A DNA stretch of 64,000 nucleotides from Linum tenue (Eukaryota > Streptophyta > Magnoliopsida > Malpighiales > Linaceae), in assembly GCA_946122785.1 (NCBI GenBank), contig CAMGYJ010000009.1, positions 25,889,633 to 25,953,632 of the forward strand, written 5' to 3'. Shown piece by piece: positions 10,391 through 43,998 of this stretch. The notes under the pieces were generated by a model that saw nothing but the letters and a program-made list of their open reading frames with translations, did not search any database and had not been told where the DNA came from. The translations under genes were made by a program, and so were the position numbers. Position 1 is the stretch's first letter, and each line of letters opens with the position of its first letter.

Positions 10391-11783
10391 TGATAGACCG
10401 TTAGTTACACATGTTTTTACCCCTGCTCTTACTCCGTTTGAGGTATTGATTCTCGTGTTTTAGGCCGATTTCACGCTAGGTTGTGCTTGTTTATGATATT
10501 TCAGGTCCTAGTACGTGAATGGAGGCTTGGGAGCGAGTTTGAGGTCGATTGGACGAGGATCAGACGCATGGCGAGGTTCTGAGGAAGTCGCACGGGCACA
10601 CCCACAACCCGCACGGCCGTGCAAGTGACCAGTTTGGCCGTGCGGGATTGTGCGTGGCCACGCACGGCCGTGCAAGTGACCAGCCTGGCCGTGCGGGATT
10701 GTGCGTGGGCACGCACGGGCACAAGTGAAATCCGCATGGCCGTGCAAGGTGCAATCCTGGCCGTGCGAGTTGGTTGAGGTTCGACTTATTGATACGCCGC
10801 GTTTTGGAGTGCACGGCCAGAATGGTGATGTGCACGGCCGTGCACCCTGGCCGTGCGAGTCGGGAATTGCTGTTTAAAACCCGATTTTCAGCCAAAGGAA
10901 GGGAGAGAGCTGGGTTTTGGATCCCAAACACCCAAGGGACGAACCCTAGAGAGAGAGAGCGACTTGGGAACATTCTTGGAGCTATTTCGGAGGATTTCTT
11001 CGCCATTGGAGCTCGGGAATCAAGCCCGGACTTGAAGACTGATCATCTGAAGATTCTTACTGCAGTCTCTCTCTTCTCTATGGAGTAACTTCCCTTCACT
11101 TAGGTTTTGAGGAACCCTAGCTATGTTTGTTTGATTGGATGATTGTATGAGTACTCTGACTTGATAATCTTGAGTTCATATTCAATCTATGCATGTTTTC
11201 ACGATTCAATTCTGCTTTAGTCGAGATTATTGATTCTGCTTTGATCCTATGAGAGCGAATACCTGATTAGGTCAATAGAGCACCATAGATTGATAGTAGT
11301 GGATCGATTGCTTTAGTCGAGGGTTGATTCACTGCTTTGTATCGATTGAGAACCTCATTCGATAGAGGGAGTCTAGTTCAGAACGCCTTGATCGATTGTT
11401 CTAGAGAAGGATACGTCCCTCTAGGCAATTGACTCAAGAGGGCCTTGTTCCTTTAGTCGAGACTCAAGGTCTAGTCAAGGATTCTCCGCATTGTGAATGA
11501 AGTGAAACAAGTTAGAAATCATCGATCGTTAATCTGGCTAGTGGCTAGGGGGAATCATACCTAAGTGAGTTCCCAACCTGTAATTAGATTAACTTTAACT
11601 GTAGTTTGCTAGAGTAGTTTTAGTTCTTTCATCTTGATCTGTTTTGCTAGATAATGAACTGAAGCTGAGTAATAGTAACTCTAGAAACCCGTGGATTCGA
11701 TATTTATTACTTGAGCCACAATACTGCAGTCCCTTTCATTGGTTACACTTGGCCATTGTTAGGAGTTGTGTTTTAGCGAGTCA
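10391..11783 (+). repeat. 5' LTR of element B
   Basis: 1,393 bp from TGATAGACCGTTAGTTAC to TTTAGCGAGTCA. The start matches the 3' LTR at 13858. The 10600-10870 part contains repeated CACGGCCGTG and half-sites GGCCGTGCGGGATTGTGCGT. The open frames there are translations of this repeat, not genes. Confidence 0.9.
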
Positions 11784-13857: not shown

Positions 13858-14362
13858 TGATAGACCGTTAGTTACAAATGTTTTTACCCCTGCTCTTACT
13901 CCGTTTGAGGTATTGGTTCTCGTGTTTTAGGCCGATTTCACGCTAGGTTGTGCTTGTTTATGATATTTCAGGTCCTAGTACGTGAATGGAGGCTTGGGAT
14001 CGAGTTTGAGGTCGATTGGACGAGGATCGGACGCATGGCGAGGTTCTGAGGAAGTCGCACGGGCACACCCACAACCCGCACGGCCGTGCAAGTGACCAGT
14101 TTGGCCGTGCGGGATTGTGCGTGGGCACGCACGGGATTGTGCGTGGCCACGCACGGGATTGTGCGTGGCCACGCACGGCCGTGCAAGTGACCAGCTTGGC
14201 CGTGCGGGATTGTGCGTGGGCACGCACGGGCACAAGTGAAATCCGCACGGCCGTGCAAGGTGCAATCCTGGCCGTGCGAGTTGGTTGAGGTTCGACTTAT
14301 TGATACGACGCGTTTTGGAGTGCACGGCCAGAATGGTGATGTGCACGGCCGTGCACCCTGGC
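13858..14362 (+). repeat. Truncated 3' LTR of element B
   Basis: It matches the first part of the LTR at 10391 nearly base for base. The copy number of the GGCCGTGCGGGATTGTGCGT / CACGGCCGTG repeat differs (one extra tract at 14120-14180). It breaks off at 14362. Confidence 0.85.
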
Positions 14363-14556
14363 TAACAACCTCCGGGATCACATTTCCACTCCTCAAAAGA
14401 ATAGCGTTGCAACTGGCATTTTGATCTTTGGGGTTAGCAATCGTTTGAGAGGGTAGGGCTCCTCCATGAATTGCTCAATCTTCTCGAACTTTTGAAAACT
14501 TTTACTAAAAAAGGTGGTGACTAGGTTTTCAGGATTTGCAAACTTTTTGGGTTGTT
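14363..14556 (-). pseudogene. gag fragment of a Tat/Athila-type element
   Basis: Minus-strand translation gives FANPENLVTTFFSKSF and KFEKIEQFMEE, then in a shifted frame NPKDQNASCNAILLRSGN. The corresponding gag part of the leftmost element reads FNTIEQFMEK, NSKDPNSHCNAITTRSGK. It is therefore a roughly 65-codon gag piece with one frameshift, cut on the left by element B and on the right by the MULE. Confidence 0.75.
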
Positions 14557-14559
14557 GTT

Positions 14560-15125
14560 CATAGGTCGACCTCAGAACCATCACAGGTCGACCTCGGCTA
14601 AATGAAAACGAGCATAAAATGGCCCAAATGATGGTACCAATTGAGTGCAAAACAGATCCGGTCGACCTCATAATCTGAAGAGGTCGACCAGTGGTAGTTT
14701 CGCACAATTTGAAATACAATGAGACAATAACTCGCACTTTTGCCTTCATAGGTCGACCTCAAAACCATCATAGGTCGACCTCGGCTAAATTAAAATGAGC
14801 ATAAAATGGCCCAAATGATGGTACCAATTGAGTGCAAAACAGATCCGGTCGACCTCATAATCTGAAGAGGTCGACCAGTGGTAGTTTCGCACAATTTGAA
14901 ATACAATGAGACAATAACTCGCACTTTTGCCTTCATAGGTCGACCTCAGAACCATCATAGGTCGACCTCGGCTAAATTAAAACGAGCATAAAATGGCCGA
15001 AATGATGGTACCAATTGAGTGCAAAACTTCACAGGTCGACCTCATAATCTAAAGAGGTCGACCTCAGTCTATAAAACACGGCCAGAAATAATAGAAAGAC
15101 ATCACAGGTCGACCTCAGAACCATC
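14560..15125 (+). repeat. About 187-bp tandem units with paired GGTCGACC
   Basis: Units start near 14564, 14751 and 14938, each with four GGTCGACC sites around ACGAGCATAAAATGGCC and GGTACCAATTGAGTGC. Degenerate continuations run to about 15410. It lies downstream of the transposase stop. Confidence 0.85.
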
Positions 15126-15948
15126 ATAGGTCGACCTCAGTCCATAAAACAGAAAGCAAAAGCGGAATGAAAGCTTGATGCGGTCGACCACGAATATGAG
15201 AAGGTCGACCGCACCTAGCGTACAGAAGGAAAAATCCCTCTTTTTCAAGCTACAGATCTACAAAAAACGGCCAGAAATCATAGAAAGACATCACAGGTCG
15301 ACCTCAAAATCATCATAGGTCGACCTCAGTCCATAAAACAGAAAGGAAACTAGATTACAAGTCAGTTGCGGTCGACCACGATGATGAACAGGTCGACCGC
15401 TTCTGACGAACAGAAGCAAAAACCCCTCTTTTCCATCTTTAGATTTTTTGAAAACAAAAGGAAGAAGACAAGAATCAACCCAAATGAAAAAGAAGAGTGA
15501 AAAGCATTACCTTGTTCTTCTTCTAAGTGATGAGGATGAAGGTTTTCAAGAGTTTTTGGAAAATGGTGTTTTTGGAAATGGGAGAAGAAGATGAAGAAGG
15601 GAAAGGAGAGGAAGAATGAGTGGATGTGGGGGGGATAGGGTTCTGATTGTGGTGTAGAATGAGTGGGGGAGGGTTTCTTAAATAGAGGATGAAGGGAGGT
15701 TTGGGTGGGTGGTCTGGTCAGGTCAACTGGTTTGGTCGGCCGTATTAAATGCGCGGTCGACCGCGCTAAAGTGTTCGGTCGACCGCCTTTGGTCCGGTCA
15801 ACCGGAACTTTTATGAGGTCGACCGTTTATGACTTTATTTCAACCCACAATCAATTAACTCATACATTAGTAAGATAATTCGAAGATAATACAATGCAAT
15901 CACAGTTATTAAAAAATAAAACAACTCCTAAAAAAAAATAGAAGAAAT

Positions 15949-18135
15949 TTAAGATCCTTTTTTGGGACTTTGTTTCGGGCACTTGGGCCGAAAATGACCA
16001 TATTTCCCACATTTCGAACACTTTCTCAAACCTTTGCCCGATGCAGTTCGTGCTGACTTGAATGTCCCCTTGGTCTTCCCAATTTTTGGATCTTTCACAC
16101 TTCGAAGGGGTGCTGGAGGGTTTGCCGGTGTGGTGTTGTCTTCTCTCTCCTTCGCGAACTCAATTGCCCATTGAGTAAGGTCGTCCAACGTCTTAGAGAC
16201 ATGATTAAAAGCAGATTCACTACCACACGCGATGTCACATAAACGCTTACACTTTAGAGCCAATCCTCCATGTCTTATCAGTCGACCAACTCTCTCTCCC
16301 ACATCACCTCCAGCTCCAGGATGACGATTTAGTGTCTTCGCATTTTGGGTCCATCGAAGCTTGAACCAAGTCGAGGGTAGTGCGGTGTATCCCATATTTT
16401 TTATTACTGTAAGCATGTGTCTGCATGGAAACCCCTTAGATTCAAATAATGCACACTCGCATTTGAGATCTTGAGTGGACGTAGTAAATGTTAACCGCCT
16501 TATCCGATCTGGGTTCATGTAGTTCTTCAGTATGAATGTCTCTGTCCCATCTGATTCATTTCTTCTCTCCGCTAATACATAAGAAGCTTCATTCTCTAGT
16601 TCAGTCTTGAAGATAGCAAATGTACGATGAGTGTAGATACTTTCAGCTTGCATTTCCCAAGTGCGCAGGGCATGCTTGCAGACCAACCTCGTGTGCCTAG
16701 AAGAATAATCATCCTGCGTCTCCGTGAAACGCATCCCCTCCAGTGCTTCATCAATGCCCTGAACAAAACGTTGCAAGCTGTATTGAGTTCCCACGTACCC
16801 ATTTATCCAATGGTTACATGACTCACATCGCGAGGTTGATTGGAGTCCACCGAAATAAATATCCTTCAAGTATGCCTCTGCCCACAGTAATTTGTCAGCG
16901 TACAAATCCTGCAACCACTTATTTGCAGACAAGCCATGCTGACTAATCAAAAGCTCCCAACGCCTCTCAAACTCCTCAATCGATATTCGTGCTTTCGCCA
17001 AGTAAGTGAATGCGCTAACGAACTCCTTATTATGAACGGCTGTTGTCGCATTTGTCTCAATATGCCAAATACAAAGACGGTGAGGCACTCCAACCAGAAC
17101 AGTAGCAATGGCACCACGCATAGACTTGTCTCCGTCTGTGATCACTGAAGTGGGCATCTTAGAGTTCATACACTCCAGAAAAGTATTCAACAACCAAACA
17201 TAGTTGGGGATTGTCTCGTTATCCAACTGGGCAAAACCATATATGATGTTACGGTGGTGGTGATTTACACCAACCATCATAACAAATGGTCGATTGTACC
17301 TGTTGCGCTTGTAGCATGCATCGAACGCCAAGACATCCCCAAAAAAATGGTAATCTGCTCTAGATGTGGAGTCCGACCAGAAGAGATTGCCTAATTCACC
17401 TTCATCGTTGGTTGTGTACTTGAAGAAGCTGCCCGCATCAGAGCTATGTTTACTTTGTAAGTAACCCAATGTTCGGTTAACATCTCCTATTAGATCGTCG
17501 TCAACTGTTCGGGATTGCTGAACAGCATTGTCCAAATCCTTTGGAGTGTACCCCAGATTCTCATATCCTCCAACTTTATTCTTCATGAACTGAACAATGT
17601 TGCGTTGTTTTATTCCTGACTGTCGCATCCCTATCGCATGAGCCTTGTCTCCTTCACTCACATTTCGATGAGACCGAAGGAATTGAGTTTCTTCTTCATT
17701 GCAGCAACGATGTGAGTGCTTCCTCTCAAACTTAGAAACAACCCACATTTTCTTATTCCGATCAAATCGTACAGTATACGATGCCTTGCAAGAATGTCTT
17801 GTCATCTTACGATGTTGCCGAATCCGACCTTCTTTATCTATATGCATCTTATCTCTAGTCCCCTCTCTCGAACATACCATTGTCCTCCCAATTGCTACTC
17901 CTCGACGACTCCTCCGAAGATCTCTACGTCGAACGCTAAATCCTTTCGCTTTAGCATAGGAATCGTAAAATTTCTCTGCATCTTCTAATGTTTGGAACTC
18001 CATGGAAGGAATTTGTTGTTCATATTCAGTAGCTTCTTCATCATCCATAAATTCTTCTTCTGCACCCTCGGTTTCATAATCATCTCCAAAGACTTCATCA
18101 TCATCTCTATCGTCTGTATCATCTCTGTTATCCAT
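15949..18135 (-). CDS. MULE transposase, FAR1-related (728 aa)
   Basis: An uninterrupted 728-codon frame. Acidic N-terminus (1-45); FAR1-type zinc-finger DNA-binding domain (about 45-145; C88, C116, H140, H142); MULE DDE core with candidate acids D272 (AFDACY), D334 (VITDGDKS) and E438 (SRCESCN); CIWH at 355-358; SWIM zinc finger (C559, C561, C571, H573); C-terminal CCHC knuckle (C706, C709, H714, C719). The set is complete and full length for FAR1/FRS and Jittery-like transposases. A domesticated FRS factor is possible, but the surrounding tandem repeats and adjacent Ulp1 gene favour a mobile element. A 105-bp triplicate starts 6 bp upstream of the ATG. Confidence 0.92.
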   Translation of the reverse strand: MDNRDDTDDRDDDEVFGDDYETEGAEEEFMDDEEATEYEQQIPSMEFQTLEDAEKFYDSYAKAKGFSVRRRDLRRSRRGVAIGRTMVCSREGTRDKMHIDKEGRIRQHRKMTRHSCKASYTVRFDRNKKMWVVSKFERKHSHRCCNEEETQFLRSHRNVSEGDKAHAIGMRQSGIKQRNIVQFMKNKVGGYENLGYTPKDLDNAVQQSRTVDDDLIGDVNRTLGYLQSKHSSDAGSFFKYTTNDEGELGNLFWSDSTSRADYHFFGDVLAFDACYKRNRYNRPFVMMVGVNHHHRNIIYGFAQLDNETIPNYVWLLNTFLECMNSKMPTSVITDGDKSMRGAIATVLVGVPHRLCIWHIETNATTAVHNKEFVSAFTYLAKARISIEEFERRWELLISQHGLSANKWLQDLYADKLLWAEAYLKDIYFGGLQSTSRCESCNHWINGYVGTQYSLQRFVQGIDEALEGMRFTETQDDYSSRHTRLVCKHALRTWEMQAESIYTHRTFAIFKTELENEASYVLAERRNESDGTETFILKNYMNPDRIRRLTFTTSTQDLKCECALFESKGFPCRHMLTVIKNMGYTALPSTWFKLRWTQNAKTLNRHPGAGGDVGERVGRLIRHGGLALKCKRLCDIACGSESAFNHVSKTLDDLTQWAIEFAKEREDNTTPANPPAPLRSVKDPKIGKTKGTFKSARTASGKGLRKCSKCGKYGHFRPKCPKQSPKKGS

Positions 18136-18140
18136 CCTGC

Positions 18141-18455
18141 AACGATCGGAATACGAACTTTATGTCAAAACATACACAATTAGCTCTCGTCAGGTCGACC
18201 TGAATGAACTGGACGGTCGACCTTATTAATAAATAACAAACATGAAACGATCGGAATACGAACTTAATGTCAAAACATACACAATTAGCTCTCGTCAGGT
18301 CGACCTCAATGAACAGGACGGTCGACCTTATTACTAAATAACAAACATGCAACGATCGGAATACGAACTTAATGTCAAAACATACCCAATTAGCTCTCGT
18401 CAGGTCGACCTCAATGAATAGGACGGTCGACCTTATTACTAAATAACAAACATAA
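18141..18455 (+). repeat. 105-bp tandem triplicate next to the transposase start
   Basis: AACGATCGGAATACGAACTT recurs at 18141, 18246 and 18351, exact 105-bp spacing, each unit with one pair of GGTCGACC sites. It lies just upstream of the transposase ATG and so is probably its promoter or 5' leader. Confidence 0.9.
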
Positions 18456-19190
18456 GGTCGACCTAATTTACTGAAAGGTCGACCTAATCGAAAACTACGA
18501 AAGAACGGTCGACCGGATGGTGCTTGTGGTCGACCGGATGGTGGGAAAAATTTAGCCACATAGAACCATTAACAAGCATATACGAAGCATACCTTAGCAA
18601 CGAGGTCGACCACTTATTGGTACGGTCTACCGGAATAAAAATAAACCGCCACCACACCCGATCACAATAAGCGCGATGAGATTATAACTTCACTCCAACA
18701 AATTGTAAGATTTCGTGGTACGATTAATGTCTGAAGACTCCCATCTATTTATAGATAATTTAGACGAATTCCTTATCCAATTGGTTCAAGATATATAAAA
18801 TCATAATTCGACAAGGACAAGTACACAAAATCCTAATTGTACAAGGACAGGAATCATCACGGTCGACCGCTTTGCACAAATGGTCGACCGTCTTGGGTAA
18901 ATATGAAACAGGTCGACCTCTTTACAAAAATGGTCGACCGTTGTTTTTAAATGTGAAACAGGTCGACCTCTTTACAGAAATGGTCGACCAATGATTATAA
19001 ATGTGAGCACAGGTCGACCTCTTGACAAGAATGGTCGACCGTACTTTTATTAAGGCCAAACAGACGAGTATCCATACTTATTTTACATGGTTTTTGACTT
19101 TCCTACAGTATCATAGGTCGACCTTAAGCTTCACGAGGTCGACCTGTGCTCTGCCTTTGGGTATGCCCGCTTTGAGTATGTGGTCGACCA
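18190..19190. promoter_or_regulatory. Intergenic GGTCGACC cluster
   Basis: About 22 exact copies between the transposase start and the 3' end of the protease gene. Measured pairs: 18861/18882, 18911/18932, 18961/18982, 19012/19033, 19116/19137, each 21 bp start to start. One degenerate site (GGTCTACC) lies near 18623. The two helical turns suggest binding of a dimer pair on one DNA face; that is inference. Confidence 0.7.
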
Positions 19191-19345
19191 CTTGTTCTAG
19201 ACGATTGAAATCGTAAATTCAGTCACATACATAATTGTATAACAAATCTAATAAACGATAAACATTCAAAATCCAAAATGAAACGATCTCGCAAATACAA
19301 AATAAATGTATGGTCCAAATAATGCAACATTGTAACTTAACGACT

Positions 19346-21433
19346 TCATTTCTTTGCTTTTTTCTTGGAACTCTGTCTCTCTTTGCCTCGTTCCATGCAT
19401 TCATCTACTACTGCCTTGAAAAGATTTTCTCGTGCACGGTTTTCAAAATGTGTAGCCAGATACCATAGAATCTCCTTTCGAGCCGGTAATTTGTGTTCTT
19501 CTCCTATCTGCATTATGCCATGTAAGATTTCGTTACAACTAAAAAAAGTGTATATTATACTAGTTATTTGTTTGACGATATACTCACCACTCTATCAAGA
19601 TCCTTGGATCCATAGCGCATCCACTGCATGACGTGCACACCACACTCAGTACTATTCCTTTGTCGTTGAACTGGTAGCTCATCAAAATTGAAATCTCCAA
19701 AATTTGGTACTACTACATTGCTCGTGCGCTCTGGTTTCAAAATATCATCCAAAGTGGACAACTACACACAAATAACGAATATTTTAAACTTCTAGCATAC
19801 TACGTAACGCTTAGTAGTCAGAAAATTATAGGAAACACTTACCAATTTCTTGCATAGTTCTGATTTACGCCTACGATTCGCCTCAATAGTTGAAGGTAGA
19901 CTGTCAAGCAAAAATGCAGTTTTTTGCTGGACATTGACGAGATACAGAAACCAATGACGTGCTTCATCTTCAAGAACTGGCATAAATATCTAGCAACGAA
20001 ACACTCACTATATGTTATAAACAGCGAATACAAACAAATGCACTTTCGAAATTTAATGATATAGGGACATTGACTAGACTAACCTTCTGGCATGCACTGA
20101 CATTCGGCATAAAGTCCACGCCATCATTCATCAACTTGTTACGAATTTGTCTGGTCTTCATGTTAGCGCGTACCATTTTCTGCACCATGTTTTAGTTGAG
20201 ATGAATTGACATGGTACAATATAAATAACTAGGTTATGACAAATAATTTGACATTACGGCTCTTACCGAAAACATATTTGGAAAATACCACACATTTGGC
20301 TCTTTCACATCATGTTTTTCAGACATTGTTAGTGCCCTTGCACACAAATCCACTACCTACCATCCAACAATAAAACACAAAATCATCGTAAATCGTAACA
20401 TAAATAGTGCACAATTCATACGAAAGTCGTAGTAGTATAGTACTTACTGATGAGCAAACCCAGCTTTTCTCGCTAATGACCGAACTCAAATAATGTCGTT
20501 GCAGGTTTTCAGAAAAAAAGTCCACAATCATCAAACTGCAAAAATCAAGATAACAGAAATGTCAATTGTTTTTTTGCAACGTACAGGTCGACCTGTACAC
20601 AGTCAAGGTCGACCTTATTGGACACACGGTCGACCTTATTGGACAACCGGTCGACCACACGTACTAGAAAAACGTCTTACTTGTCCCAATTCTTGTCCCC
20701 AACCTTCTCTTTAGTAACAACATAATACAAGTCTTCAACTGGATTTTGAAGATTTTTGGTGAATCCTTCTAGACCCTCCACTTTCATGACCTACAAATCA
20801 TAGTTAAAATTAAAGTAACATATGAACACAAACACACATTATAGATGAAAATGTAACGTAAACTTACCCCGTGCTTTTCGAAAGGACTCTTAGATTCATC
20901 TTCATCGCTATCATCACTAAATAATCCCTTTCTTACAAATTGATCCTTCTGTGGAGTGGTGTAGGAGTCACTTTCATATCGCGGTCTCTTGTAATTAGGA
21001 GAGGAACCCTTGCGGCCATTCTTTGTTTCACTCTGTCAAACATATAAACAAAATAGATTAGCACTAATGATAGTAATACTAATATCTTCAATCACATATG
21101 AATATACTTGGATACCTTTAAAATGTGCTCTTTCAATAAATCGTCTATGCTCTGGTAGCAATTTTCAGAGTCATCATGGTCTTCCTCCTCTTTACCAAAG
21201 TCAAATTTCTTTCCTTTACCATTTGTTCCGCCATTCTCCATTCGTTCTGCACTTATATCTTTGATAGCACCTTCTAGCCTCTCAAACCCGTCATGCATCA
21301 TCCCAGTCATATCTGTCAGTCGAACTGACAAATGCTCGACTTGTGTTTGACACACCACCAGCTTCTCTTGTGTGGCTTTCAACAATTTCATGATTTCACC
21401 CAAATCTTGATGCAGTTTCTCATCATGCGTCAT
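19346..21433 (-). CDS. Ulp1-type cysteine protease of the MULE, nine exons
   Basis: My model joins 21433-21116, 21032-20868, 20790-20681, 20535-20448, 20356-20267, 20179-20084, 19989-19843, 19761-19588 and 19507-19346. All introns are GT-AG and all junctions keep frame, giving 449 aa ending KKKAKK. Residues 1-60 look like a coiled coil, then an acidic linker; the C48 peptidase domain fills the C-terminal half. Catalytic candidates: H301 (ARHWFLYL), D318 (LLDSLP), Q372 and C378 (QRQRNSTECG). Ulp1 enzymes process SUMO-like proteins; Ulp1-like genes are known in plant MULEs such as Arabidopsis Kaonashi. Intron 3 holds four GGTCGACC sites at 20-23-bp steps. A further 5' exon is possible because a splice-acceptor-like TTTAG precedes the ATG. 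Confidence 0.85.
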
Positions 21434-21510
21434 CGTCTAAACAATTTAAAGAAAAATTAAAATCATAATTCAAGTACAAATTTCTATAATTGACCAAAAA
21501 ACAAAGACGT

Positions 21511-22421
21511 GGTCGACCTGACAAAGTATTAGGTCGACCTGTAAGACAAATAGTGACTACCACAACTCGTCAGGTCGACCTCGGTTATTCCTAGGTCGAC
21601 CTATCCAGCAGGAAAATAACAATTACAAACAAATAGTAAGTTCAAAATTAAACCGAAAAAAGGACAGGTCGACCAGATATCTGGCGCGGTCGACCTTTTC
21701 AAGCACAACATAGTCATACAAACAAAGCCAAAGTCGACATTCAGGTTGAATAACCAAAAAAACATATACGGTCGACCTTGAAACTCATTAGGTCGACCGA
21801 TTGGGTTACCTCGCAAGTACAGAAGTCCAAGTGTTGTGGCCTAAATTCAAATACGAAGAATTGTCTCGTCAGGTCGACCTGGTTGACGTCGCGGTCGACC
21901 GAATTGGATTCTGCACCCAACAATATATCAAGTTAGCCGGTGGAAATCACGCATTAAAAAAGAAGACGGCGAATGCTACATTAGGTCGACCTCACCTTAG
22001 ACCTGGTCGACCTCTTCCAACACGTACAACAGCAACCGCGAACTAGGTTATTCACAAAGGCTCTAAGTCGGAAAAAAACCTAATTCAGACTTGGTGGCGT
22101 TGAAGGGGACTCATATTCGTATTTATAGAGATTTAGGACGTGAATGGGTCAACCCAATTCGTTTCCTTGTCCAATTGTGGAACCTTTCTGGTGTTGGAAT
22201 CCATATCCAATACGGATACGGTCTGAAGGCGGTCGACCTCTTCACAATGCGGTCGACCTATTAGGTGCACAAGGGTCGGCCTATGCGATATTTGGGTCGA
22301 CCTGTCATTCTGTTAGACCACTAAAACGGTCGACCGCATTTTGTAAGAGGTCACCGCCTTCAGGAACCCAACATACATGAATTAGCCCATTCGGTCGACC
22401 GCAAGTTGTATTCGGTCGACC
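21511..22421. promoter_or_regulatory. GGTCGACC pairs in the protease 5' flank
   Basis: About 18 exact sites, mostly in pairs: 21511/21532, 21573/21594, 21667/21688, 22231/22251, 22393/22414. Near 22271 and 22349 one partner is mutated (GGTCGGCC, GGTCACC), still about 21 bp from its mate. This is where the protease promoter should be. Confidence 0.7.
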
Positions 22422-22439
22422 GAAAAGTCCATGTCACGG

Positions 22440-23516
22440 TGACATGCATGTCACCGTAGCAAAATCCAAAAGCTAATTATACTTGAACAACAAAAGTTGA
22501 ATGATCACCATCTCCTAGTACTCCGCTCTCCTCTTCGAACCTAAAAATGTGGCGGGTTTCCATCCGGCTCCCTCGCAACCTGTTGCTCCAATCACCCCTC
22601 TCATTCGACAAAAACCCTGCCTCATTCGACAAAAAACCCCTGCCTCCACCACTGCTCTGAGTCAAAACTTCCATGGTCGATTTTAGAGGAGCCCTAAATC
22701 CGTCTCCAAATCCGTCTCTCTTCTGCCCTTCACCCATCGATTGATCACTTGAGCTTGCCCCGATGTTGGGTCGGCGGGCTAGGGCAATTTGGAGGGTCGG
22801 GTCGGCGGGATCGAGCAATTTGGAGGGGAATCAAATCTAGCAGGGGAACAAGGTTGCATCGTCGGTGTTTGGAATGGACTGGAGATAGAGGAGAGTCTCA
22901 TGGCATCGCCGGTCGTTGTTCGCGATCCCTAGTCATCGTTTGAGTCCCTATCGATCATCGTCCCTCTCTCCTCTCCCATCTTTCGGCCACCGAAGTTGTT
23001 CCACTGGTTGTATGAGAATCGGAGCTTCATCGTCTTCCAGATGGAGAGGGTTGAGGAAGCGAGGTCGCAGGAAGAGCAGCTTGTCGTGGGGGAAGGCGAC
23101 GACCGGCGGCGAGATATCGTTGCCATAGATGCTGATTTGAGGAAGGGATTTGAAGGCGGCGACGACGATGCTTAGAATTGAGGGCGGGGTAGGGTGGGGA
23201 GCGGGTTGAAGGTGACGATGGGTAGAAAGTGATTTTATTTTTATTTTTTAATTATTTTGCATTTTAATTTGATTTTGAATTAAAAATATATGTGGTATGA
23301 TGTGGCATCTACGTGGATGCCACGTTTCCTTCCATGTCAGCAAAAGTCAACATCTCTTTGACCACCGTCAGGTCAACCGTTAGAGATAACGGTCAACGAA
23401 ATCGCCAGGATACAAATGGCACAAAGTATCATAGTTCATGATAGAACTGGAATATTGAAAAGAATAGGACACAAGTGGCATTTCTTTGATAGTTCGGGTG
23501 TTGTAGTGGTATTAGC
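22440..23516. other. GC-rich unrecognised segment, possibly a small MULE or Pack-type insert
   Basis: Starts after a 26-bp palindromic stretch (TCACGGTGACATGCATGTCA). GC-rich, exon-like DNA runs from 22500 to 23200, then AT-rich DNA. The far end reads, on the minus strand, GGGCTAATACCACTACAACA, typical of MULE-like terminal repeats; the left end has only a faint counterpart (AGCTAATTATACTTGAACAA at 22471). A minus-strand 113-codon frame (22818-22477) contains SSDQSMGEGQKRDGFGDG; I do not recognise it. Confidence 0.35.
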
Positions 23517-23897: not shown

Positions 23898-24446
23898 TGT
23901 TGGACCGGTAAATATGACATGGCCCAACTCGAACAATAACGGTAATCCACAAACACATATGCGCCCAAGTCCACAGAACACCACAAAGATCCAATGAAAG
24001 CCCAATGAAGGGTGACTGGACCTATAAATATACTCTTAGGTCTTCCAACCACAAACACATATGCGCCCAAGTCCACAGAACACCACAAAGATCCAATGAA
24101 AGCCCAATGAAGGGTGACTGGACCTATAAATATACTCTTAGGTCTTCCAACCACAAACACATATGCGCCCAAGTCCACAGAACACCACAAAGATCCAATG
24201 AAAGCCCAATGAAGGGTGACTGGACCTATAAATATACTCTTAGGTCTTCCAAGTAAGGGATCTCTTCTTCTTTCTCCTTTACTCATTTTGACATATCACT
24301 TATCTCTCTACAATCTCTCTCTACCTAAGATCTCCTAATTTCTCTATCATTGTACTAATGTTGATCGTCAGAGTGTAGATAATGGGGATGGGGGTCATCC
24401 CCGCCCTTTCACAGATCGGAAGCTTTCTTGTTTCTTGGTTGAAACA
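23898..24446 (+). repeat. 5' LTR with triplicated promoter
   Basis: From TGTTGGACCGG to TTGGTTGAAACA, 549 bp including a 102-bp tandem triplicate. Confidence 0.7.
23949..24254 (+). repeat. 102-bp tandem repeat x3, each with a TATA box
   Basis: ACAAACACATATGCGCCCAA starts at 23949, 24051 and 24153. Each unit ends with ACCTATAAATATACTCTTAG, a good plant TATA box. The units are nearly identical, so the amplification is recent. Open frames across it are repeat translations. Confidence 0.9.
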
Positions 24447-43094: not shown

Positions 43095-43888
43095 TATGAG
43101 TCATATTATTATACATTACACCTTCTCTATACAGTTATGCTTCAAGTTATTTAGCTAGTATGATGTTGGGGAGTGGGGACATGAGTTAATTGAATTCGTA
43201 AACATCACACCCGAAATTGAGCCTGTAGGAAATTTGACAAGCTGAAGATTTCTGGTTAGAAACGAGTATACTAATGAGTGCCTAATTGGGGAAAATTTGA
43301 GGGGACAACTTGCATCTCCAAAATATGTACCGAAAGTAAATGTCTTCACTTGGGCACCACAAATGCATCAAATATTTTGTTACAACTTGAGTTATATTCT
43401 TAATTATACTATGGGTCAAATTATTATGCATCCCGATAGCTTTCTCTTTTGAACTTATATATTGTTGGATGACTTAAGTTAATTGAGCTGGGTGACAAGT
43501 GGGGGAACTTTAGTTAGCCGTCCAGTGCACCACTGGGCGCCTAATTGGGGGACAATTGGGAATAACACGTGAATGCACTTTCAGAATTTTTCTAAGTAAA
43601 ACAAATCTTCAATTACGTGCCGAAAATTTCATAGTCTTGTTAGAAATCAGATGTGTAACAAGTAGTTTTTTCTCATTGTTTAAGTTATATCAGTAGCCAT
43701 GTTATGAGTCACATTATGTTACGTTGTTCTTCCTCTACATAGTTCTTGCTCCGAGTTCTTAAGCTATTATGATCACGAGGGACATGGATCAGCTAGTCGG
43801 GGGACAAGAAGCACAATGCAAAAGATGTGATAGGAAGAATTTTAGTTAGGCATTCAGTATACTGCTGAATACCTAACTGGGGGACAAT
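43095..43888 (+). repeat. About 300-bp diverged tandem repeats with reiterated polypurine tracts
   Basis: Three diverged units start near 43095 (GAGTCATATTATTATAC), 43410 (GGGTCAAATTATTATGC) and 43705 (GAGTCACATTATGTTAC). Each contains a GGGGGACA- or GGGGACA-type purine tract; the last (AACTGGGGGACAAT, 43875-43888) abuts the 3' LTR and is the likely functional tract. Tandem repeats in the 3' untranslated region are known in Tat-lineage elements. Confidence 0.65.
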
Positions 43889-43998
43889 TGTTGGACCGCT
43901 AAATATGACATGGCCAAACTCGAACAACAACGGTAATCCACAAGCACATATGGGCCCAAGTCCACAAAACACCACAAAGACCCAATGAAAGCCCAATG
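43889..43998 (+). repeat. Truncated 3' LTR
   Basis: 110 bp matching the start of the LTR at 23898 with about 10 differences, then unrelated sequence. Confidence 0.75.

What the first reader, a model, noticed from the sequence alone, without database searches (positions are those of the whole stretch)
14560..22430. A MULE whose non-coding DNA carries about 65 GGTCGACC palindromes in helically phased pairs
Seen: roughly 65 exact copies of an 8-bp palindrome in 7.9 kb (chance expectation well below one), none in exons, present in flanks, intergenic DNA and one intron. Most come in pairs with starts 20-22 bp apart, commonly exactly 21, while the sequence between partners varies; several decayed sites keep the 21-bp position. 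Uniform spacing with variable filler suggests selection for protein binding on one DNA face, not mere repeat spread. Established analogy: Arabidopsis VANDAL MULEs carry short motifs throughout their non-coding DNA, bound by their own VANC anti-silencing protein. Inference: the transposase, the Ulp1 protein or a lost partner reads this palindrome, either as a transposition signal or as an anti-silencing address.
Basis: partly seen in the sequence, partly recalled or inferred. Interest (0 to 1): 0.9.

Follow-up and report, generated by a model that had tools for sequence, protein, structure and literature searches.

The report
Jumping gene covered in paired palindromes
A recently active plant transposon carries dozens of copies of one 8-letter palindrome, set in pairs two DNA turns apart in its non-coding DNA but not in its protein-coding parts, which looks like a built-in landing pattern for one of its own proteins and a second, separate example of a self-labelling strategy known from Arabidopsis VANDAL transposons.

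Summary
The window copy has 67 exact GGTCGACC in 14558-22430 (0.05 expected); 62 of 67 have a partner 20-22 bp away; none lies in 3,537 bp of coding sequence. The 32 pairs form 20 filler clusters no more alike than shuffled sequence, so they are not one amplified repeat. The window copy has lost its left end. A full copy elsewhere is 10.84 kb, with 99 sites, terminal repeats and three genes: Ulp1-type protease, FAR1/MULE transposase, and a third gene (Pfam Transposase_32) missing from the window. Genome-wide there are 8,392 pairs at 21 bp and 2,770 at 22 bp (reversed-motif control 0 and 0). Sites change less than nearby non-coding DNA (1/375 versus 89/3,040 bp; 0.8% versus 3.0% in 62 copies). 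Short gene-less elements keep the same termini and phased sites. Best reading: a selected address read on one face of the helix by an element-encoded protein, most likely for anti-silencing as with VANDAL/VANC, perhaps also for transposition. Binding and methylation are untested. By its domains the element resembles Jittery-type, not VANDAL, MULEs.

The parts
14558..22467 (-). Left-truncated three-gene MULE; the break lies inside a 187-bp tandem repeat and the left end with the third gene's coding exon is missing
   Evidence: aligns to the full copy C2:1206324-1217164, which continues roughly 2-3 kb beyond the break (the repeats make the exact match point ambiguous)
14564..15398 (.). 10 pairs of GGTCGACC at 21-22 bp, in the first intron of the third gene
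   Evidence: intron inferred from the GT donor at 15510 here and the AG acceptor before the ATG in the full copy
15511..15684 (-). Promoter (TATTTAA at 15684) and 5' UTR exon of the third gene, left without its coding exon
   Evidence: TATA-like word; splice donor read by eye; inference
15734..15824 (.). Exact sites 15755, 15777, 15817 plus one-mismatch GGTCGGCC 15734 and GGTCAACC 15796, upstream of the third promoter
15949..18135 (-). Transposase CDS: FAR1 domain, MULE domain, SWIM, CCHC knuckle (the knuckle is below its Pfam cut-off)
   Evidence: open frame in window and full copy
18193..18611 (.). 11 exact sites (5 pairs, one single) between the transposase TATA box and its ATG
18746..18753 (-). 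TATAAATA, presumed transposase promoter
18861..19189 (.). 11 exact sites (5 pairs, one single) between the protease stop codon and the transposase TATA box
19346..21433 (-). Ulp1-type protease gene, 9 exons, 449 aa
   Evidence: Hand-made gene model, Peptidase_C48 E=1.3e-13, same splice sites in the full copy; no transcript seen
20586..20656 (.). Four sites in a 21-bp ladder inside intron 3 of the protease gene
21511..22012 (.). Six pairs at 21 bp between the protease TATA box and its ATG (5' UTR and probable 5' UTR intron)
22120..22127 (-). TATAAATA, presumed protease promoter
22231..22421 (.). Six exact sites and one one-mismatch site (GGTCGGCC 22274) upstream of the protease promoter, next to the terminal repeat
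22422..22467 (-). Right terminal inverted repeat, itself containing a 22-bp palindrome (ACGGTGACATGCATGTCACCGT)
   Evidence: same terminus in the full copy and in gene-less copies
22468..22476 (.). Expected right half of the 9-bp target-site duplication (AAAAGCTAA); the left half is lost
   Evidence: Inference from 9-bp duplications flanking L128-L131

Best explanation
GGTCGACC is a sequence-specific binding site used by this MULE family, and the working unit is a pair of sites 20-22 bp apart, so that two palindromes lie on the same face of the helix two turns apart (two dimers side by side, or one tetramer). SHOWN: the sites are far above chance, absent from the coding sequence examined, paired at 20-22 bp with fillers of separate origin, slower to change than their surroundings, and kept by short gene-less derivatives next to the terminal repeats. 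INFERRED: binding spread over the promoters, 5' UTRs, introns and subterminal DNA keeps the element open and unmethylated, as VANC does for VANDALs, and the sites beside the terminal repeats may also help assemble the transposition complex. Each site has a CpG at its centre, so binding could be sensitive to, or protect against, CG methylation.
For: Excess and pairing. 20 unrelated filler clusters, all at 20-22 bp. Genome counts 8,392 at 21 bp, 2,770 at 22 bp, 14,114 at 10-40 bp; reversed-motif control 0, 0 and 22. In 29 further loci around the third gene, 584 of 584 neighbour distances under 29 bp are 20, 21 or 22, and 0 of 1,230 sites lie in the third gene's CDS. Full copy: 99 sites, 92 with a partner at 20-22 bp, 0 in 4,875 bp CDS. 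Substitutions window versus full copy, gaps set aside: 1/375 bp in sites, 89/3,040 in other non-coding DNA, 28/3,537 in CDS (Fisher P 3e-4). 62-copy 3' flank: deviation 0.80% in 88 site columns versus 3.03% in 273 others; 0 versus 21 columns with more than 10% deviation (P 0.002). One pair stands at 20, 21 or 22 bp in 59 of 62 copies (50, 2 and 7); in the other 3 the stretch is deleted. 34 non-redundant gaps between pairs also cluster near multiples of the helical turn (R 0.47 at 10.5 bp; P 0.003 against random gaps of 26-93 bp). Coding sequences under purifying selection: third gene pN/pS 0.33, transposase 0.29.
Against: No binding, methylation or transposition was measured. The copies are young and related, so the substitution tests are not independent of ancestry; sites were defined by being present in a copy or in the consensus, which favours low change, and gaps were not counted as changes. 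Non-site CpG columns in the 62-copy set are also fairly conserved (1.8%, 18 columns), so the CpG contrast there is weak (site CpG 1.2%). Some pairs were multiplied by tandem duplication. The helical test also shows a second rise near 12.5 bp (R 0.41). The protease shows no excess of silent change between window and full copy (dN 0.0079, dS 0.0057). The reader protein is a guess between three: Transposase_32 is described only as a putative plant transposon protein and the third-gene protein has no informative PDB relative (two weak hits, E 0.064 and 0.56). VANC domains were not found. Genome counts at 20 bp and below 20 bp were not obtained.
Confidence: 0.55

Rival explanations
1. Transposition signal only: the sites are subterminal transposase-binding repeats, as recalled for TnpA of En/Spm, and the internal ones are excess copies spread by duplication.
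For: Five short elements (L127-L131, about 0.46-1.1 kb, too short for the genes) keep sites right behind both terminal repeats; four of them have exact 9-bp target duplications. The FAR1 domain is a DNA-binding domain by its Pfam description, and GACC half-sites resemble the W-box of WRKY proteins (recalled); PMC2528002 puts the FAR1 zinc motif in the WRKY-GCM1 family.
Against: Sites also fill introns and promoters far from the ends, with fillers of separate origin, and are conserved over the right part of the element, 15440-22468.
Confidence: 0.22
2. Promoter operator: the sites are activator or autorepressor sites that set expression of the three genes through an element or host factor.
For: Each of the three TATA-like boxes has sites upstream and downstream.
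Against: Short elements without the genes keep the sites; sites also stand in a mid-gene intron (20586-20656) and behind the last gene (11 sites in the 3' flank consensus).
Confidence: 0.1
3. RNA or single-strand hairpins: two palindromes 21 bp apart can pair as an 8-bp stem with a 13-base loop.
For: The geometry allows it; many sites are in probable transcripts.
Against: In the five pairs of the 3' flank across 62 copies, 32 cases have one mutated partner and 3 have both; none of the 3 is compensatory. Hairpins need neither a self-palindromic site nor a fixed 20-22 bp spacing, nor phasing between pairs.
Confidence: 0.03
4. Repeat spread without function: the motif rides on minisatellites and is homogenised by gene conversion.
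For: Clear tandem arrays of 187, 189, 105 and 50 bp carry pairs; array copy number varies between elements; the 21-bp ladders of the short elements share related fillers.
Against: 20 unrelated filler clusters, absence from the CDS examined, and lower change in the sites than in other non-coding DNA of the same stretches.
Confidence: 0.07

Closest known systems
VANDAL MULEs and their VANC anti-silencing proteins (Arabidopsis; PMC5735166, PMC10398659, passages read)
   Same: Short motif in introns, intergenic and terminal non-coding DNA; tandem repeats of changing number; three genes (VANA, VANB, VANC); sequence specific to the family
   Different: VANC21 motif is YAGTATTAY and VANC6 motif AGTTGTCC/AGTTGTAC, not palindromic, and not described as paired in the passages shown (the word 'palindrom' is absent from PMC5735166); VANC is drawn with DUF1985 and DUF287, not found here; VANDAL terminal repeats are called degenerate or lacking, though PMC6446971 says that some members of the clade have them; the transposase here has a FAR1 domain
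Kaonashi (KI) MULEs and other ULP1-carrying MULEs (passages in PMC13317346, PMC2528002)
   Same: Ulp1 gene beside a MULE transposase; PMC2528002 reports ULP in Jittery-like families of grapevine and melon; KI elements have three genes
   Different: No phased palindromes and no Transposase_32 gene mentioned in the passages read
Jittery-group MULEs (group 36 in PMC6446971, passages with table)
   Same: FAR1 at the N-terminus, SWIM or CCHC at the C-terminus, terminal repeats in some
   Different: Listed with one ORF; this element has three genes and 10.8 kb
Hvu_Abermu of barley (PMC9168764, section 13 and passages)
   Same: A MULE with three ORFs, 9-bp target duplications and GGG...CCC ends; high copy number
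   Different: 8.2 kb, MURA-like transposase in a clade distant from Jittery; ORF2 and ORFR of unknown function; no motif array described in the parts read
En/Spm CACTA elements with TnpA (recalled; a search gave no paper)
   Same: Many short subterminal sites bound by an element protein that also counters methylation (recalled)
   Different: Different superfamily; sites subterminal only and not palindromic pairs (recalled)
Athila retrotransposon extra ORF with Transposase_32 (PMC11728184, passages)
   Same: Same Pfam family PF20167; nuclear localisation predicted there
   Different: A Gypsy retrotransposon; no motif array described in the passages read

Membership tests
Mutator-like element (MULE) | MULE transposase domain | tested here: met
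   PF10551 E=1.4e-22, 80.4 bits against cut-off 27.6
Mutator-like element (MULE) | Terminal inverted repeats and 9-bp target duplication | tested here: met
   Shared termini in window, full copy and short copies; exact 9-bp duplications in L128, L129, L130, L131, read by eye. Not exact for the full copy (TAAAATTTT versus AATATTTTC) and none seen for L127; left end lost in the window
Jittery/FAR1-type MULE | FAR1 domain N-terminal, SWIM or CCHC C-terminal | tested here: met
   PF03101 E=2.5e-16, PF04434 E=6.4e-6; PF00098 16.8 bits, below its cut-off 20.8
Jittery/FAR1-type MULE | Placement in the Jittery clade of a transposase tree | not tested
   No reference transposases were at hand; the protein database was switched off
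VANDAL | VANC protein with DUF1985 and/or DUF287 (PMC6446971 lists DUFs in half the members only) | tested here: not met
   Third gene: only Transposase_32 up to E=10; protease: only Peptidase_C48 and a sub-threshold hit up to E=1
VANDAL | Absent or degenerate terminal inverted repeats | tested here: inconclusive
   96-bp inverted match at 79% between the ends of the full copy, so not degenerate; but some VANDAL-clade members have terminal repeats (PMC6446971), so the feature does not decide
VANDAL | Placement in the VANDAL clade of a transposase tree | not tested
   No tree; the FAR1 domain is listed for the Jittery group and not for the VANDAL group in PMC6446971
VANDAL-like anti-silencing system (works like) | Family-specific short motif in non-coding DNA only | tested here: met
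   0 of 67, 0 of 99 and 0 of 1,230 sites in the coding sequences examined
VANDAL-like anti-silencing system (works like) | An element protein binds the motif and removes DNA methylation | not testable with these tools
   Needs EMSA, ChIP or DAP-seq and bisulfite data
KI-MULE / ULP1-MULE | Ulp1 protease domain gene in the element | tested here: met
   PF02902 51.8 bits against cut-off 20.7

The most novel reading that the evidence does not exclude
A FAR1-type MULE lineage evolved, independently of VANDALs, its own sequence-specific anti-silencing system with a stricter grammar: methylation-sensitive palindromes (CpG at the centre) set in two-turn pairs and read by a Transposase_32 protein, which would give that Pfam family, also carried by an Athila retrotransposon, its first function as a TE-encoded DNA reader.
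Probability: 0.3. Interest if true: 0.9.

Novelty: new variant of a known kind. Interest (0 to 1): 0.76.

Why it matters
If right, sequence-specific anti-silencing would not be confined to VANDALs but a strategy that arose in another MULE lineage with a different protein and a readable spacing rule. The paired palindrome makes the question directly testable: one motif, three candidate proteins, many copies to compare. It could also give a function to Transposase_32, and supply a compact DNA address for opening chromatin in plants. Ten searches of the held paper library listed no paper that I recognised as describing such an element; only passages of a few were read, and the library lacks most subscription papers.

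Tried and rejected
Coding repeat: rejected. Pair spacings of 20, 21 and 22 mix frames, and sites avoid the CDS. One search printed 23 of these 120 loci (the viral one and those with more than six sites): G+C 0.40-0.76, several with strict 21-bp ladders that suggest heptad coding repeats (not checked by translation). I do not count them as relatives.

Terminal repeats within the window: none found, explained by the lost left end.

Viral contigs: no relative of the transposase (which finds close relatives only).

FAR1-domain model: AlphaFold2 without alignment, mean pLDDT 68; Foldseek against the PDB gave nothing at E<=0.001. Inconclusive, not used.

Motif text search: 584 papers hold GGTCGACC, the 40 listed being mostly unrelated work, probably primers or constructs (listing only).

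Not obtained: genome counts for 20-bp and 10-19-bp spacing and the terminal-repeat pattern count (server busy); copies of the protease gene; more diverged families.
Full report
WHAT IS THERE. The window holds 67 exact GGTCGACC between 14564 and 22421 and one elsewhere. A dinucleotide model of the window predicts 0.05 in that stretch. 62 of 67 have an exact partner 20-22 bp away, and three of the five others have a one-mismatch partner at 20-21 bp. None lies in the coding exons of my gene models: 3,537 of 7,911 bp are coding (counted to 22468, one base past the end). The 32 pairs form 20 filler clusters; by cluster, 15 are spaced 21 bp, 4 are 22 and 1 is 20, and the fillers of different clusters are no more alike than shuffled ones (39.7% versus 39.1%, sd 0.6). 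Just outside the outer ends of the representative pairs the base is A or C in 38 of 40.

THE ELEMENT. On the minus strand, from right to left: terminal repeat, Ulp1-type protease gene (9 exons, 449 aa, Peptidase_C48), transposase (FAR1, MULE and SWIM domains, with a sub-threshold CCHC knuckle), then a promoter, 5' UTR exon and splice donor with no coding exon behind it (inference). The left end is cut at 14558 inside a 187-bp tandem repeat. The same genome holds a full copy, C2:1206324-1217164 by its termini, 10.84 kb, 96-97% identical outside the repeats, with 99 sites, 92 of them partnered at 20-22 bp, none in 4,875 bp of CDS (which counted C2:1206325-1217172). There the missing exon is present: a 418-aa protein with one Pfam match, Transposase_32, E=3e-22. 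Its upstream intron holds 40 of the 99 sites (positions).

COPIES. The third-gene protein gave 100 scored matches (of 2,536 first-look candidates), 75 without internal stops. The transposase gave 61 scored matches (of 3,955), 49 without stops. Both lists are capped. In 52 of the 61 a listed third-gene match lies downstream on the same strand, 1.2-3.2 kb away; the window copy is one of the nine without. Third gene pN/pS is 0.33 (27 stop-free of 30 copies) and transposase 0.29 (9 stop-free of 10 loci plus the full copy), so these two proteins were kept functional until recently. For the window-C2 pair alone the protease shows no such excess (dN 0.0079, dS 0.0057), too few changes to judge. Short elements of about 0.46-1.1 kb (L127-L131) share the terminal repeats; four of them (L128-L131) show exact 9-bp duplications, read by eye. 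The full copy's flanks do not match exactly (TAAAATTTT versus AATATTTTC). No site was found in 2 kb stretches on either side of the full copy's locus (L135, L136).

GENOME-WIDE SPACING. Exact pairs: 8,392 at 21 bp, 2,770 at 22 bp, 14,114 at any start distance from 10 to 40 bp. The tool's control, the motif read backwards, gave 0, 0 and 22; that control word lacks a CpG, so it should if anything be commoner. The counts at 20 bp and below 20 bp could not be got. In 29 third-gene loci all 584 neighbour distances under 29 bp are 20 (58), 21 (154) or 22 (372), and 0 of 1,230 sites are in the third gene's CDS. The gaps between pairs also favour whole helical turns (34 non-redundant gaps of 80, from the window, the full copy and L127-L134; R 0.47 at 10.5 bp; P 0.003 against random gaps of 26-93 bp), with a weaker second rise near 12.5 bp.

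SELECTION. Window versus full copy over 15440-22468, gaps set aside: 1 change in 375 site bases, 89 in 3,040 other non-coding bases, 28 in 3,537 coding bases (Fisher P 3e-4). The left part of the window copy, with the repeat arrays, was not in this comparison. 45 of 47 window sites and 44 of 48 C2 sites are matched; of the six unmatched, one is a substitution (GGTTGACC) and five are gaps. In the third-gene 3' flank of 62 copies (30 best, and 32 that I chose from the other 70), 631 of 682 site instances are intact, 41 are changed and 10 gapped; deviation is 0.80% in site columns and 3.03% in others between the first and last site. One pair stands at 20 bp in 50 copies, 21 in 2 and 22 in 7, and is deleted in 3. 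12 of the 41 changed sites are CpG transitions at the centre (GGTCAACC or GGTTGACC), which fits methylation of silenced copies. No compensatory change was seen in pairs (32 with one mutated partner, 3 with both, 0 compensatory), against hairpins. Limits: shared ancestry, sites defined by presence, and non-site CpG columns also fairly conserved (1.8%, 18 columns).

MECHANISM. Shown: a selected, paired, non-coding DNA motif carried by an active-looking family and its short derivatives. Inferred: two dimers or a tetramer bind one face of the helix. The third gene is my first choice because such a spread address needs a dedicated reader, it is kept under selection, and its C-terminus holds a repeated segment (GMYEYMGQMNAQMT/GMYDYMGQMNAQMS), much as VANC proteins have arrayed peptide motifs in variable regions (PMC5735166, passages). 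The transposase is second: FAR1-type zinc motifs are put in the WRKY-GCM1 family (PMC2528002, passages), and the W-box TTGACC (recalled) shares the GACC half-site. The Ulp1 protein is third: in Kaonashi elements a VANC-type gene carries the Ulp1 domain (PMC13317346, passages). Anti-silencing is preferred to a pure transposition signal because the sites surround internal promoters and introns and are conserved there.

COMPARISON. VANDAL/VANC is the closest working model: motif in introns, intergenic and terminal non-coding DNA, tandem repeats that change quickly, and methylation loss directed by VANC (PMC5735166 and PMC10398659, passages). Membership is not supported: no DUF1985 or DUF287 was found and the transposase has a FAR1 domain; its clear terminal repeats do not decide, since some VANDAL-clade members have them (PMC6446971). 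By domains the element fits the Jittery group (PMC6446971, passages with table), listed there with one ORF; Ulp1 genes in Jittery-like MULEs are known (PMC2528002), and a three-ORF MULE of another clade is known in barley (PMC9168764, section 13 and passages). Transposase_32 is reported in an Athila extra ORF (PMC11728184, passages). No tree was built. What seems new, as far as ten searches of the held library show, is the paired, helically spaced palindrome array and the three-gene FAR1 element with Transposase_32. I file it as a new variant of a known kind.

Noticed in passing
14363-14557: Stretch left of the break reads, in two frames on the minus strand, like a Gypsy gag-pol junction (LPSQTIANPK...NAILLRSG; likeness recalled, not searched). 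The break looks like a rearrangement rather than a clean insertion of the element.
   Followed up: no
10610-10745 and 14077-14360: Another palindrome-rich tandem array (GCACGGCCGTGC and GTGGCCAC units, 51- and 22-bp periods) in a segment duplicated 3.5 kb apart (10391-10851 and 13858-14362, 90% identical).
   Followed up: partly
22436-22457: The terminal repeat itself contains a perfect 22-bp palindrome (ACGGTGACATGCATGTCACCGT), with close forms in the short copies.
   Followed up: partly
L127:1219-2316: The 1.1-kb element looks like a long foldback (inner halves appear to be inverted copies, by eye), with a 21-bp ladder of sites at one end and one pair at the other.
   Followed up: no
23947-24252: Three identical copies of a 102-bp tandem repeat; 23892-24007 matches 43882-43998 at 93%.
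   Followed up: no
L004, L053, L061, L087: Bacterial contigs with 9-12 GGTCGACC in strict 21-bp ladders, probably heptad coding repeats.
   Followed up: no
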